From: a bacterium
GTDB taxonomy: Bacteria; JAJVIF01; JAGGVT01
DNA: 7,684 bases
Direction of reading: 5' to 3'
NCBI GenBank assembly: GCA_021157815.1
Contig: JAGGVT010000022.1
Location: forward strand, 1-7,684
Under the pieces are notes generated by a model. It was not told the DNA's origin. It did not search any database and saw only the letters and a program-made list of their open reading frames with translations. This document shows, piece by piece, positions 3 to 4,337 of this stretch (its first letter is position 1; each line of letters opens with the position of its first letter). Position numbers and translations under genes: made by a program.

Positions 3-1019
3 GCTGATGGTCGAGATTTCCTCATCGATACAGATGATGGAATCGTACTTGATAATTATTCGATGCCTGAATACGCGACCTATCAGACATTCCCGGCAAC
101 TGTAGTTTTAGGATGCGGTCCAATCACCGGATCGATCACATCACCTGCATGCCCGGTTACATCTACAACTAATGGTTCTTTTATTGACTTCGTCGTTACC
201 GCTGCGAGTGATAATGGTGGAGATCCGATCGTGCTTTACGAAGTTGACACCGATTACGATGGATCAGCTTTCACAGCTGATGCTTCAAACACAGACGGAA
301 ACTTCGTTGCAGTCGGTCCGTTCAATAACCCGAATTGCGGAACCCCACCCGAGGATCCCGTAACCTACACAGTTGCATTCAGGGCAACAGACAGTTGCAC
401 ACCTGCAAATGAAACCGTGTTCGCCACATGCGATGTTACGGTTGATATTTGCTGCTCTGATGAGTCATTATTGTATGAATTTACTTCATCAATCGAAGGC
501 TGGGCAGGTGGAGGCTGTGGACTTACAAACAACGACCTTTATGGTTGGGGTCATTTCGCATGGTGTACGAATGCAGCTGGATCCTGCTTTAGTGGTGGAG
601 CATTAACCACTGGTGGAGATAATTACGGTAGCGGTTGTAGTTACCTAACTGACCATTACTCCAATGCGGATTTCAATGTTGTCAGCCCATCAATCAATCT
701 ACCTACTGCTGCTGATACAACCATTGAATTCAATCACTGCAACGCATTCGGTTCCGGTGGACAAGCATACCTTTATATCTCTCTTGCTGGATGCACAGGC
801 CCATGGACTGAAATCTGGACCACAACTACTGCTAGTGAATGTATTTCTGATGAATCAATCGACATCAGTTCATATTCAGGAACAGATGTTATGTTCAGAT
901 TCCAGTATACATGCCCCAATGTTAAATTTGATGGCGGTTCCTGTGGAAACGCTGGAATTGTCATTGATGAAGTGGAAATCTCTGGTTGTTTCACAGGTGG
1001 ATCACTCCACGAAAACTAG
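3..1019 (+). CDS. Partial: C-terminal part of a large cysteine-rich secreted protein with PKD-like and jelly-roll (MAM/choice-of-anchor J-like) domains
   Basis: The reading frame is open at the left edge from base 3, so the ATG at 63 is internal and the true start lies outside the window. From that Met, residues about 25-130 look like an Ig/PKD-type beta domain (ends AFRATDSC...CDVTVD). Residues about 133-312 look like a beta jelly-roll: YEFTSSIEGW opening, a VVSPSINL strand, WTEIW, DISSYSGTDVMFRFQY and the closing VIDEVEI. That order is typical of MAM/choice-of-anchor J domains in secreted adhesins and peptidases. There are 17 Cys in the last 318 residues, which suggests disulfides and an extracellular location. 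No catalytic motif, C-terminal transmembrane anchor or obvious sorting domain is seen; it ends in a short polar tail. The function is unknown; adhesin or accessory region of a secreted enzyme is an inference. A terminator follows 27 bp later. Confidence 0.8.
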   Translation, partial: ADGRDFLIDTDDGIVLDNYSMPEYATYQTFPATVVLGCGPITGSITSPACPVTSTTNGSFIDFVVTAASDNGGDPIVLYEVDTDYDGSAFTADASNTDGNFVAVGPFNNPNCGTPPEDPVTYTVAFRATDSCTPANETVFATCDVTVDICCSDESLLYEFTSSIEGWAGGGCGLTNNDLYGWGHFAWCTNAAGSCFSGGALTTGGDNYGSGCSYLTDHYSNADFNVVSPSINLPTAADTTIEFNHCNAFGSGGQAYLYISLAGCTGPWTEIWTTTTASECISDESIDISSYSGTDVMFRFQYTCPNVKFDGGSCGNAGIVIDEVEISGCFTGGSLHEN

Positions 1020-1079: not shown

Positions 1080-1200
1080 GGGTGGCAAGATATGCTTTTC
1101 TCTGCGATTTGTTGAATATCTTCCTGACTTCGCACCCATCCTGGCAGTATGGCAATAACACCTCTATTGTGATTATAGCCGAGATTACCTCTCACTAACG

Positions 1201-1392
1201 AGCCTGTCGGAAAAGGTTTAATAAGCAAGGAAGTAATAATAAAAAATCCGTAATTGTATTCAATGTCATTCCGGGCTTGACCCGGAATCCATCTTCAAAC
1301 CTAAAAGATGTGGATTCTGAATCAAGTTCAGAATGACAATCTGTCATCTTTGAAGAAATCTGGAGTAAAAAAACAACCTTTTCCGACATCCT
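1201..1392. mobile_element. MITE-like element with 18-bp imperfect terminal inverted repeats and 6-bp target duplication
   Basis: The left end at 1201-1218 (AGCCTGTCGGAAAAGGTT) matches the reverse complement of 1375-1392 at 16 of 18 positions, and the inner 14 bases are identical. CTAACG lies immediately outside both ends (1195-1200 and 1393-1398), consistent with a 6-bp target-site duplication. The 192-bp interior codes for no transposase, so it would be non-autonomous. A REP-like palindrome pair is nested in it. It sits 18 bp past the stop of the FHA gene and may act as that operon's terminator. The transposase family is not assigned. Confidence 0.6.
1264..1338. repeat. REP-like double palindrome (BIME-like), two inverted 21-nt hairpin units
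   Basis: Two related units face each other. Unit 1 at 1268-1288 is ATTCCGGG, loop CTTGA, CCCGGAAT. Unit 2 at 1314-1334 is ATTCTGAA, loop TCAAG, TTCAGAAT. The outer flanks TGTC and GACA also pair, so the whole 75 bp can fold as one cruciform. Translations of this repeat (HSELDSES, ILNQVQND) are familiar spurious peptides in many bacterial genomes, which marks it as a widespread dispersed repeat and not a gene. Confidence 0.75.
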
Positions 1393-1410
1393 CTAACGTT
1401 CGAGGCTCGG

Positions 1411-2184
1411 TTACGTTCGGGGTTTCGAGACGAGCGTATATTCCCTGTCAGCGAAGCGAATCTCATCCCCCTCATCCAGTTCGCGCCATTTATATGGCGA
1501 TATAGCGACACCATTCACCAGTGTCTGATTTTTTGAACCCTTGTCCTGCACTTTTACAATTATCAAACCCAGTTTGGATGCATCTTCCCTAAGTTCAATC
1601 ACCGCGTGTTCATGCGCGACATACGCCGCATCATCAATGCGAACATGGCAAAACTCACCGCGTCCAACCAGATTTTCACCAAGGCGAAGCTGATATTCTT
1701 TATCGTCCTGAGCTGCCTTCAAATAATAAACAGACCCCATTTCCTCGCCAGTGCCAATGTCGCTTTTGAATTCGAGCGTATATATATTCGACCCAATTTT
1801 CATTTTGTCTCCCGCCTGAAGAGGAATCTCCTCCTGCGGCGGTATTCGCCTGTCGCCGATGAAAACTCCGTTATGAGAATCCAGGTCTTTAACATGCATC
1901 TGATGTTCCTTATAGACAAACTCGCAATGAAGTCGGCTGAGTTCGAGGTCATCCCTGACAACAATATCACCCATGTCGCGGCCAAGTGTCGTGCTGGCTT
2001 TTTCGATTTTATATTTCTCATGGCTCGACAATGCAAGGAAAATCCGCGCCTCTTCGATTTCCCTGTCTTCAGGCAGTTTTTCCGATGACAGCGGCTCCTG
2101 TTTCAGATACCATCCGCAATGAGGGCAGAAGCCATCATCAGACTCAAATTCTTTTTTGCAATATGGGCATTTGCCTTGAGCCAT
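1411..2184 (-). CDS. Zinc-ribbon protein with two FHA domains
   Basis: A 257-residue protein with no signal peptide or membrane segment, so it is probably cytosolic. Residues 6-23 form a zinc ribbon (C6-P-Y-C9 and C20-P-H-C23). FHA domain 1 spans about 46-140 with the full signature: G68-R69, S83-R84-L85-H86 and H104-N105-G106. FHA domain 2 spans about 150-254 with G174-R175, H193 and N219. There the phosphate-contacting Ser is replaced by A190 and the usual N-G by N219-Q220. FHA domains bind phosphothreonine peptides, so domain 1 should bind and domain 2 may not. The ATG directly abuts the TAG stop of the VWA gene, with a GAGGGGG ribosome site 8 nt upstream, indicating translational coupling. 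It is the last gene of the operon. The partner protein is unknown. Confidence 0.93.
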   Translation of the reverse strand: MAQGKCPYCKKEFESDDGFCPHCGWYLKQEPLSSEKLPEDREIEEARIFLALSSHEKYKIEKASTTLGRDMGDIVVRDDLELSRLHCEFVYKEHQMHVKDLDSHNGVFIGDRRIPPQEEIPLQAGDKMKIGSNIYTLEFKSDIGTGEEMGSVYYLKAAQDDKEYQLRLGENLVGRGEFCHVRIDDAAYVAHEHAVIELREDASKLGLIIVKVQDKGSKNQTLVNGVAISPYKWRELDEGDEIRFADREYTLVSKPRT

Positions 2185-3501
2185 CTAGCCATCCCCCTCG
2201 TTTGAATTGTTGTCGGATTTCCTTTTGGGACGTTTTAAATGCTGCGCGGATTGAGTCAGTCTCTTCGCGGCTTCCTCATCCTCTCCCTTTCCAAAGGAAT
2301 GAATCGCCTCCTGAATATCCATCGCCTCGATTGTCCGCCCACTCATTACAAGCGTTTTCTGGTAATCCTTGAGTTGTTTATATGCCTCATCGCGCGATAT
2401 TGTCTGCGTCTTGATTCCCTGGATTGTGCCTATCAGATGCGACTGGACATTTTTCATTGTCAGCGCGCGGTCAACCCGTTTTGTGTTTGCTTGTTTCAGT
2501 TTATTCGTATCGGATGAAAACTCCTGAATTCCAAAACTCGAATACTTGCTGATTTCATCGTTGCCCTCAGCGCGATACGAGGTCGTGATATCGAACGCCT
2601 TGAATAATCCCTCACCATGCGGTTGCGCATTCAGGCTGAAAAGTATTTCCAACTCCTGCGCTCGTTCCAAATCAGGCAGAGTTACAATATGCTCACCTGA
2701 GAAACCGCGTGAATCGTAATGGTAAATTTCCTGTATCCTGAAATCCGCGGTTGGCTTAATAGTCAGTTCCAATCCTCTTATATGAACGTTTTTCACAATT
2801 CCCATTTCACGCTGAAATAGTTTTTTAACATCACGGGGCCGTGATGAATGGTAGTAAAACCCGCCTCCGGCATCTGTCATTTTAACAAGCAGTTCCTCGT
2901 TGTAATCAAGCCCAAGACCGATTGCGCTCAAACTGATTCCCGATTTGCGAATATCCTCCACCAGCGCGGCAAGTTCATCATCCTCAGTTAGTCCCTTGTT
3001 GGGGTTGCCGTCCGTAAGAAGAATCAGTTTTGAAACATCCCTTCCTCGCCTGAGTTTTCCAAGCGTTGCGGCGCCTTTTTCCAATGCGGCTGAAATGTTC
3101 GTACTGCCTCCCGCGATTATCGCATCTCGAAGATCACGCGCGGTCTCGGGCATTTTATCTGCCCCGACTCCCTCAACAACTTTCTCGACTTCATCATCGA
3201 ATAGAAAGACACTCATACGGTCAGTCCCCGACAGGTTGCGCATCAGCGCAATCGCGCCCTCCGCCGCCTGCAAAAACGGCGTACCCAGCATCGAGTGCGA
3301 CCTGTCAATCAAAATCCCAAGATTGACTGTCAGCTTGCTTAAATCGGCTCCGTGCGCAAGGCTTCGTACGACCATCAGGAAATAATTCTCGACTGTACTT
3401 TTTGCCAGCACTGTATTCCGAAGAGGGAGAATTTCGATTTCAATCTCGCCATCGTGTGATACGAACGGCCCTGCTTTGGGTATGTTATTTTGATCTGTCA
3501 T
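2185..3501 (-). CDS. VWA-domain protein with complete MIDAS, cytosolic
   Basis: 438 residues with no signal peptide or transmembrane helix. The VWA domain covers about 58-235. All metal-ion-dependent adhesion site (MIDAS) residues are present: D66-x-S68-x-S70 in LIDRSHSM, T134 in GGSTNI and D164 in LLTDGNPN. A beta-rich segment follows (about 240-320, after GLELTIKP). The C-terminal part, about 335-425, is charged and predicted helical, and the end is hydrophilic (KRPKRKSDNNSNEGDG). The architecture resembles the soluble bacterial VWA proteins often labelled calcium-activated chloride channel homologues, a label with no functional support. The ATG is preceded by AGGA at 5 nt. It sits between a four-zinc-ribbon gene (56-nt gap) and the FHA gene (0-nt gap), so a shared scaffold or signalling role is likely. 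VWA proteins often work with MoxR ATPases, kinases or PP2C phosphatases; none is in this window. Confidence 0.93.
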   Translation of the reverse strand: MTDQNNIPKAGPFVSHDGEIEIEILPLRNTVLAKSTVENYFLMVVRSLAHGADLSKLTVNLGILIDRSHSMLGTPFLQAAEGAIALMRNLSGTDRMSVFLFDDEVEKVVEGVGADKMPETARDLRDAIIAGGSTNISAALEKGAATLGKLRRGRDVSKLILLTDGNPNKGLTEDDELAALVEDIRKSGISLSAIGLGLDYNEELLVKMTDAGGGFYYHSSRPRDVKKLFQREMGIVKNVHIRGLELTIKPTADFRIQEIYHYDSRGFSGEHIVTLPDLERAQELEILFSLNAQPHGEGLFKAFDITTSYRAEGNDEISKYSSFGIQEFSSDTNKLKQANTKRVDRALTMKNVQSHLIGTIQGIKTQTISRDEAYKQLKDYQKTLVMSGRTIEAMDIQEAIHSFGKGEDEEAAKRLTQSAQHLKRPKRKSDNNSNEGDG

Positions 3502-3514
3502 GATTTTCCTGTAA

Positions 3515-3534
3515 CCCGGTGTCCCTTCGCCGGG
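3515..3534 (-). other. Small hairpin in the 56-nt gap between the zinc-ribbon and VWA genes
   Basis: CCCGGTG at 3515-3521 can pair with CGCCGGG at 3528-3534 (one G-U pair) around a 6-nt loop. No T-run follows on the minus strand, so it is not a normal terminator. It lies 4 nt upstream of the AGGA ribosome site of the VWA gene and could affect processing or translation. That role is inference. Confidence 0.3.
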
Positions 3535-3557
3535 GAAAATGCGGAACTACGGCATTT

Positions 3558-3917
3558 TTACTTTTCATCGCTAAATCTCTCCCCGCAATATATGCAGAAC
3601 CGCCCCGCTTTCTCATTCGTACGTCCACAATGCGAGCATCTTCTCGCCTTTAGCTTCTTTGGCGCCTTATCCTTGAGACGCATACCGCAGATAATGCAGA
3701 ATTTGGCTTTCTCCAAAACCGGTCCCGCGCATCTTGGGCAGACTTTCTTTTCAGCCAGTTTCATTATCGGCATGCCGCATGATGGGCAAAACTCACTGCC
3801 TTGCGCGAGTGGCTCACCGCAGTTGGTGCATTTACGCGGCGTTTCACGCTTGTATCCGCACTCAATGCAGTATGTTGCTCCGTGGGGTATATATGCTCCG
3901 CATTTTTCGCAGTTCAT
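3558..3917 (-). CDS. Small protein of four tandem zinc ribbons
   Basis: 119 residues built from four CxxC...CxxC units: C3/C6 with C17/C20, C30/C33 with C44/C47, C60/C63 with C74/C77, and C94/C97 with C108/C111. That gives 16 cysteines in regular spacing, so four structural zinc sites are expected. The units resemble the double-zinc-ribbon (DZR) family, with repeated CxxCG and FC.xCG motifs. Lys-rich linkers separate the units (for example LKDKAPKKLKARR at 81-93). There is no membrane segment. It is the first gene of the zinc-ribbon/VWA/FHA operon, and the downstream FHA protein carries the same kind of ribbon at its N-terminus. No ribosome site is visible before the ATG, and a promoter sits almost on top of the start, so leaderless translation is possible. 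The function is unknown; an adaptor or scaffold is an inference. Confidence 0.9.
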   Translation of the reverse strand: MNCEKCGAYIPHGATYCIECGYKRETPRKCTNCGEPLAQGSEFCPSCGMPIMKLAEKKVCPRCAGPVLEKAKFCIICGMRLKDKAPKKLKARRCSHCGRTNEKAGRFCIYCGERFSDEK

Positions 3918-4112: not shown

Positions 4113-4337
4113 CTACCCAAGATTTTTCAATGCGTGAGAATATTTTTTATTTCCTTTTTTTAAGGCTTTTTCAAAATCCTTTTGCCGCTTTTTATCCCTG
4201 ACAGGTGAGATTACCAACACTTCTCCATCAGTGGTTATCTCCAACGGTGTATCAGCATCGATTTTCAACAGTTCCAGTATCGCCTTTTCAATTACCAGAG
4301 CAAGGCTGTTCCCATGTTTTGTCAAACGCTTAATCAT
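4113..4337 (-). CDS. AbrB/MazE/SpoVT-family antitoxin-like DNA-binding protein, no toxin partner visible
   Basis: 74 residues. The N-terminal half (about 1-50) is a swapped-hairpin AbrB/MazE domain: MIKRLTKHGNSLALVIEKAI, then LELLKIDADTPLEIT and VLVISPV. The C-terminal part is a basic, helical tail (RQKDFEKALKKGNKKYSHAL) of the kind that binds a toxin. Such proteins normally dimerise, repress their own operon and neutralise a co-encoded toxin, often of the Doc/Fic or MazF type. Here the 195 bp after the stop contain no toxin gene, only a terminator candidate and operator-like repeats; the first ATG in the expected place gives 5 codons. The ATG at 4337 has a strong AAGGAAG site 6 nt upstream and a well-placed promoter. 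It is either an orphan transcription factor or the survivor of a lost toxin-antitoxin pair. Confidence 0.88.
   Translation of the reverse strand: MIKRLTKHGNSLALVIEKAILELLKIDADTPLEITTDGEVLVISPVRDKKRQKDFEKALKKGNKKYSHALKNLG

What the first reader, a model, noticed from the sequence alone, without database searches (positions are those of the whole stretch)
1411..3917. Compact zinc-ribbon / VWA / zinc-ribbon-FHA operon without a known partner
Three cytosolic proteins made only of binding modules are encoded in a row: four zinc ribbons, a VWA with intact MIDAS (D66, S68, S70, T134, D164), and a ribbon plus two FHA domains. Sharing of zinc ribbons between the first and last gene, and the abutting TAGATG between VWA and FHA, argue for one physical complex. 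FHA implies a Thr kinase somewhere, and VWA often pairs with MoxR or PP2C modules, yet none is adjacent. It may be an undescribed phospho-dependent scaffold system.
Basis: partly seen in the sequence, partly recalled or inferred. Interest (0 to 1): 0.6.

Follow-up and report, generated by a model that had tools for sequence, protein, structure and literature searches.

The report
Bacterial ArnA/ArnB-like phospho-switch operon
Three adjacent genes in an uncultured bacterium encode proteins built like the archaeal ArnA-ArnB pair, whose two partners hold each other loosely or tightly depending on phosphorylation, so the operon probably makes a bacterial signalling switch of a kind studied so far mainly in Sulfolobus.

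Summary
On the minus strand lie a four-zinc-ribbon protein (3917-3558), a VWA protein with intact MIDAS (3501-2185) and a ribbon-FHA-FHA protein (2184-1411). The VWA-FHA pair is adjacent in all 4 genomes held for this phylum, the full three-gene order in 3 of 4, with ATGA overlaps in two. "Without a known partner" is wrong in substance. The VWA model (pLDDT 86.8) is the tripartite ArnB fold: vWA inserted in a beta-sandwich plus a C-terminal four-helix bundle. ArnB (8s05_A) is Foldseek's top PDB hit (VIA Z 31.5, 374 of 381 residues). ArnA is a ribbon-FHA protein that binds ArnB loosely through the ribbon, and tightly through FHA once the bundle is phosphorylated. Bundle threonines T359 and T365 are present only in the five bacterial VWAs encoded beside a ribbon-FHA-FHA gene, among 34 compared. 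A second bacterial lineage (G294) and the archaeon Halobellus also pair VWA with ribbon-FHA. I read the operon as an ArnAB-like phospho-switch with tandem FHA and an extra four-ribbon protein. It is not a strict ArnAB orthologue: ArnB_C does not match and the tree split is only moderately supported. No kinase, PP2C or MoxR is adjacent; kinases and MoxR lie elsewhere.

The parts
3558..3917 (-). Four-zinc-ribbon protein (119 aa); first gene of the operon; no counterpart in archaeal ArnAB
   Evidence: 8 CxxC pairs, all 16 Cys invariant in G002/G003 orthologues
2185..3501 (-). VWA protein (438 aa), ArnB-like: vWA domain inserted into a beta-sandwich, then a C-terminal four-helix bundle
2791..3330 (-). 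vWA domain proper (residues 58-237), intact MIDAS D66/S68/S70/T134/D164
3361..3465 (-). N-terminal strands of the beta-sandwich (residues 13-47)
2515..2787 (-). C-terminal part of the beta-sandwich (residues 239-329)
2239..2481 (-). C-terminal four-helix bundle (residues 341-421); contains T359, T365, T383, T390, candidate phospho-sites
   Evidence: phosphorylation itself inferred
2182..2187 (-). TAGATG: VWA stop directly followed by FHA start (translational coupling likely)
   Evidence: ATGA overlaps in G002/G003
1411..2184 (-). Ribbon-FHA-FHA protein (257 aa), ArnA-like architecture
2116..2169 (-). N-terminal zinc ribbon (C6-x2-C9-x10-C20-x2-C23; same spacing as the ArnA zinc finger C21/C24/C35/C38 given in PMC12852372)
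1765..2046 (-). FHA1 (residues 47-140), pThr-binding motif intact
1420..1737 (-). FHA2 (residues 150-255), motif Ser replaced by Ala in 3 of 4 orthologues

Best explanation
The operon encodes a bacterial phosphorylation-controlled switch that works like ArnA-ArnB. Shown: the VWA protein has the ArnB tripartite fold (as a predicted model) and lies in an operon with a ribbon-FHA-FHA protein. Inferred by analogy: in the resting state the N-terminal ribbon of the FHA protein docks loosely on the beta-sandwich and helix bundle of the VWA protein. A Hanks-type kinase, of which the kinase-FHA protein encoded elsewhere in the genome is the first candidate, then phosphorylates threonines of the helix bundle (T359, T365, T383, T390). 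FHA1 then binds them tightly, exposing or hiding surfaces such as the MIDAS and the ribbon for a downstream client. The separate four-ribbon protein is inferred to be a further docking subunit or output adaptor. In one family a fourth gene, a ribbon plus membrane-spanning protein, would tie the complex to the membrane. The client and the input signal are unknown.
For: VWA model pLDDT 86.8: strands 13-47, vWA 58-237, strands 239-329, helices 341-364, 370-386, 390-404, 408-421. Foldseek rank 1 is ArnB 8s05_A, E 5e-25; VIA Z 31.5 over 374 of 381 residues, ArnE 5a8j Z 29.3. Profile hit to 8s05_A E 6e-33 over positions 76-412. ArnA FHA 5a8i/8s05_C match the FHA profile at 5e-10 and 1e-9. The ribbon Cys spacing equals that of ArnA. 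Order conserved in 3 of 4 genomes and the pair in 4 of 4. G294, outside the phylum, has VWA directly followed by ribbon-FHA-FHA. T359 and T365 are Thr in 5 of 5 bacterial VWA proteins encoded beside a ribbon-FHA-FHA gene and in none of the other 29 aligned. FHA-linked VWAs (with ArnE) form one side of a branch, 98/93 support in the 36-row tree. ArnA and ArnB are often in one operon (PMC4858521); mechanism from PMC12852372 and PMC6509490.
Against: The tripartite fold is widespread and not specific: Catenulispora 4fx5 scores as high as ArnB (Z 32.6), and PMC12852372 says most proteins of this architecture are not in multi-phosphorylation systems. Pfam ArnB_C does not match in this genome. Identity to ArnB is 18-19%. 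The FHA domains are generic: ArnA is not in the top 50 of their fold search. Without the two long rows the FHA-linked split has support 65/88 only. The Halobellus VWA lacks the bundle threonines. No SIETT-type repeat is present. Phosphorylation and complex formation are not shown.
Confidence: 0.62

Rival explanations
1. The VWA protein is a substrate-binding co-chaperone of a MoxR-type AAA+ ATPase encoded elsewhere, and the FHA and ribbon proteins are client adaptors.
For: 4 matches to the MoxR family in this genome and 4-5 in each relative; intact MIDAS; ArnB-subfamily VWAs in archaea are more often next to MoxR/GvpN (PMC4858521).
Against: No MoxR gene appears among the neighbour ORFs examined in any of the four genomes. 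The conserved neighbour is the ribbon-FHA-FHA gene.
Confidence: 0.13
2. The operon is a reduced form of the kinase-PP2C-VWA signalling triads of biological-conflict systems (TerY-P type; GAP1-N2/tubulin type of PMC7159879), with kinase and phosphatase lost or acting in trans.
For: Halobellus rufus has VWA next to kinase-FHA, ribbon-FHA and kinase-FHA, with a PP2C-like and a tubulin-like ORF beyond them read by eye. Kaur et al. describe zinc-ribbon kinase, PP2C and standalone vWA neighbours.
Against: No kinase, PP2C, tubulin-like or Ter gene was recognised in the neighbourhoods of the four genomes. No PP2C_2 match in any of them. No effector domain. The pair is present in all four genomes of the phylum, unlike patchy conflict systems.
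Confidence: 0.12
3. The FHA protein is a GarA/OdhI-like regulator of metabolic enzymes, and the VWA protein is only a co-transcribed neighbour.
For: Nonomuraea ribbon-FHA hit at 27% identity with the motif TTSTIS, which I recognise as GarA. GarA/OdhI FHA domains are among the PDB matches.
Against: No ETTS-type N-terminal motif in the window protein; a second FHA domain; adjacency to VWA kept in four genomes and in G294.
Confidence: 0.07

Closest known systems
ArnA-ArnB (Saci_1210/Saci_1211) of Sulfolobus acidocaldarius; PDB 8s05, 5a8i
   Same: Tripartite VWA protein plus ribbon-FHA protein; adjacent genes; intact MIDAS; threonines in the C-terminal helix bundle; ribbon spacing CxxC-x10-CxxC; kinase not adjacent
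   Different: Bacterial; 18-19% identity; two FHA domains instead of one; extra four-ribbon protein; no ArnB_C profile match; no SIETT repeat; shorter ribbon-FHA linker; no link to archaella shown
ArnE/vWA2 of Sulfolobus (5a8j) and Catenulispora acidiphila Caci_2163 (4fx5)
   Same: Same tripartite fold, Z 29.3 and 32.6
   Different: ArnE of S. acidocaldarius does not bind ArnA (PMC12852372); the bundle threonines and FHA-gene linkage are the distinguishing features here
Halobellus rufus VWA / kinase-FHA / ribbon-FHA / kinase-FHA cluster (L099)
   Same: VWA gene beside a ribbon-FHA gene
   Different: Two kinases in the cluster, with PP2C-like and tubulin-like ORFs beyond; divergent orientation; bundle threonines not conserved
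GarA/OdhI
   Same: Ribbon-FHA architecture in Nonomuraea; FHA homology
   Different: No VWA partner known to me; N-terminal phospho-motif controls self-binding; single FHA
Sec23/Sec24 core of COPII
   Same: Lower tier of fold matches; vWA, beta-sandwich, helical domain, zinc finger (PMC12852372)
   Different: Eukaryotic vesicle coat; gelsolin domain; no FHA

Membership tests
ArnA-ArnB module | VWA protein with vWA inserted in beta-sandwich plus C-terminal helix bundle | tested here: met
ArnA-ArnB module | Intact MIDAS | tested here: met
ArnA-ArnB module | Pfam ArnB_C (PF18677) match in the helix bundle | tested here: not met
   no match in G000 at E 10; the control rings in S. acidocaldarius
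ArnA-ArnB module | Partner with N-terminal zinc finger and FHA domain, encoded next to the VWA gene | tested here: met
   but two FHA domains rather than one
ArnA-ArnB module | Cluster of threonines in the helix bundle | tested here: met
   positions not shown to correspond, and no SIETT repeat
ArnA-ArnB module | Phosphorylation-dependent FHA-helix bundle complex | not testable with these tools
   needs biochemistry
ArnA-ArnB module | Common descent with ArnB to the exclusion of VWAs without FHA neighbours | tested here: inconclusive
   98/93 with all rows; 65/88 after removing two long branches
Kinase-PP2C-VWA triad (TerY-P / GAP1-N2 type) | Adjacent Ser/Thr kinase and PP2C | tested here: not met
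   no PP2C_2 match in four genomes
MoxR-VWA system | Adjacent MoxR AAA+ ATPase | tested here: not met
GarA/OdhI | N-terminal ETTS-type phospho-motif and single FHA | tested here: not met
   sequence; NCBIfam OdhI score 41 against a cut-off of 200

The most novel reading that the evidence does not exclude
ArnAB is the archaeal branch of an older, cross-domain phospho-switch (tripartite VWA plus ribbon-FHA) that also exists in bacteria, and the phylum studied here has elaborated it into a three- or four-component complex with a dedicated four-ribbon adaptor and a membrane anchor.
Probability: 0.4. Interest if true: 0.65.

Novelty: new variant of a known kind. Interest (0 to 1): 0.47.

Why it matters
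ArnAB is studied in Sulfolobales, and the 2026 structure paper (PMC12852372) names plant and fungal WAV3 ligases as its closest structural relatives outside archaea, with Catenulispora and YfbK as bacterial structural orthologues. A bacterial operon with the same VWA/ribbon-FHA pairing suggests the switch is not tied to archaella, offers an independent test of the loose-to-tight phosphorylation model, and shows which VWA threonines go with the FHA partner. It also gives a testable mechanism to a gene pair found in every genome held of an uncultured phylum.

Tried and rejected
Plasmid tblastn with the VWA protein finds mainly VWA genes of Deinococcus and cyanobacteria and yfbK-like genes; the three neighbourhoods looked at have MerR beside VWA and no annotated FHA gene. 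Of 26 genome contigs VWA loci put in the tree, only Halobellus has an FHA gene in the held flank; several flanks are short, so absence there is weak. ArnB_C profile: no match. PP2C_2: none in four genomes; other phosphatase families (PP2A-type metallophosphatases, SpoIIE) were not searched. The ribbon-membrane gene (P0001) is absent from G000 and G001. FHA fold search shows only generic FHA matches in its top 50. A complex model could not be run (single-chain prediction only). T6SS threonine-phosphorylation pathway considered; no T6SS gene in the window, not tested genome-wide. Promoter scan not informative. A comparison of kinase-FHA proteins failed on wrong coordinates and was not repeated.

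Full report
What is there. The window is a whole 7,684-base contig (G000:C39) of a 3.2 Mb draft genome. On the minus strand three ORFs follow one another: a 119-residue protein with four CxxC...CxxC ribbons (3917-3558), a 438-residue VWA protein (3501-2185), and a 257-residue protein with one ribbon and two FHA domains (2184-1411). The VWA stop and the FHA start abut as TAGATG. None has a transmembrane segment by hydropathy. Flanks are a MazE-like antitoxin ORF and murC upstream (murC named from its sequence; MazE), and a convergent ORF downstream. No kinase, PP2C or MoxR gene was recognised in the contig.

Is it conserved. Only four genomes are held for the phylum. All four have the VWA protein (38-50% identity over nearly its full length) directly followed by the ribbon-FHA-FHA gene. 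The four-ribbon gene precedes it in three of four; in G001 the best ribbon match lies on another contig. In G002 and G003 the gene junctions are 4-base ATGA overlaps, and a fourth gene follows, a ribbon plus multi-pass membrane protein that G000 and G001 lack. So the VWA subfamily looks phylum-specific, within the limits of that scan.

What the VWA protein is. The AlphaFold2 model from 30 relatives has mean pLDDT 86.8 and shows strands, vWA domain, more strands, then a four-helix bundle. Foldseek's best PDB match is ArnB of Sulfolobus acidocaldarius in the ArnAB complex (8s05, E 5e-25). VIA-align gives 4fx5 Z 32.6, ArnB Z 31.5 with 374 of 381 residues aligned, ArnE Z 29.3; the next entry aligning a comparable length is at Z 24.6 with rmsd 7.4. 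A profile of the 30 relatives matches 8s05_A at 6e-33 over most of its length. The published description of ArnE/ArnB is the same: vWA inserted in an eight-stranded beta-sandwich, then a helix bundle (PMC6509490).

Why the pair points to ArnAB. ArnA is an N-terminal zinc finger plus FHA protein, and ArnA and ArnB are often encoded in one predicted operon (PMC4858521). In the 2026 structure the ArnA zinc finger binds the beta-sandwich and the helix bundle of unphosphorylated ArnB. Kinase ArnC phosphorylates threonines of the bundle, and the FHA domain then binds tightly (PMC12852372). EDTA does not dissolve the complex, so the MIDAS is not needed for it and may serve something else (PMC7472852). 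The window FHA protein has the same order, ribbon then FHA, and the same cysteine spacing (x2, x10, x2). FHA1 keeps all pThr motif residues; FHA2 has lost the motif serine in three of four.

Independent recurrence. A profile of the ribbon-FHA-FHA protein was run against 385 genomes, 381 of them outside the phylum. In twenty regions then fetched, ribbon-FHA-FHA proteins are present in several lineages. In G294 one directly follows a VWA gene whose product matches the A4 profile over nearly its full length (24-30% identity to the phylum proteins). In the haloarchaeon Halobellus rufus the VWA gene lies beside kinase-FHA, ribbon-FHA and kinase-FHA genes; PP2C-like and tubulin-like ORFs lie beyond (read by eye).

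Two tests of specificity. First, bundle threonines: positions T359 and T365 are Thr in the four phylum proteins and G294, and in none of the other 29 aligned proteins; T383 is Thr in six of 34 and T390 in seven; the MIDAS is identical in all 34. The five are related sequences, so this is correlation, not five independent events, and the helix alignment of the distant rows is uncertain. Second, a VWA-domain tree: the four phylum proteins, G294, Halobellus, ArnB and ArnE fall on one side of a branch with 98/93 support, the 28 others on the other. After removing the two long rows (Halobellus, ArnE) the FHA-linked set is still one side of a branch (1 change against a shuffled mean of 5.6, 0 of 500 shuffles as low) but with support 65/88. 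ArnB entered the tree as the residues printed and ArnE as those. I call this suggestive.

Partners elsewhere. The genome has 8 Pkinase domain matches and one kinase-FHA protein (G000:C51) besides the operon FHA protein. Each relative likewise has a frame with both kinase and FHA domains. MoxR is present but not adjacent. No PP2C_2 match was found.

Mechanism, with status. Shown: gene order and its conservation, predicted folds, intact MIDAS, intact FHA1 motif, conserved threonines, kinases in the genome. Inferred: ribbon docking, bundle phosphorylation, FHA1 binding, release of surfaces to a client, the role of the four-ribbon protein, the membrane tether in one family. Unknown: signal, client, phosphatase.

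Membership. It works like ArnAB by architecture, but I do not file it as a strict orthologue: ArnB_C was tested and not met, ArnA has one FHA domain where this has two, and common descent is inconclusive. Hence new variant of a known kind.

Noticed in passing
L181:6680-9028; L185:7969-8865; L186:7732-8628: VWA (G294) and ribbon-FHA-FHA proteins of other lineages carry N-terminal repeats such as DPMRTQMG, DPNRTVMGS, DPNKTIMGS, possible pThr docking motifs for FHA domains; absent from the window proteins.
   Followed up: no
window 4113-4337 (-): MazE-like antitoxin ORF with no toxin gene recognised beside it, between murC and the operon.
   Followed up: no
window 1200-1393: 19-nt inverted repeat (89% complementary, 156 nt between arms) downstream of the operon, enclosing a further GTCATTC...GAATGAC palindromic stretch; looks like a short repeat element.
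   Followed up: no
G000-G003: 5-10 Pkinase domain matches per genome but no PP2C_2 match in any of the four; the phosphatase of this phylum is unidentified.
   Followed up: partly
L107:2960-3958 (+), L106:812-1864 (-): Ribbon plus multi-pass membrane protein as fourth operon gene in one family; no Pfam family found for the membrane part.
   Followed up: partly
L196:5904-8893 (-): In G205 a three-ribbon FHA-FHA gene overlaps a Ser/Thr kinase gene by 4 bases, another pairing of the same kind of FHA protein.
   Followed up: no
window 3-1019 (+): ORF cut by the contig start with a weak choice-of-anchor J domain match; probably a secreted surface protein.
   Followed up: no
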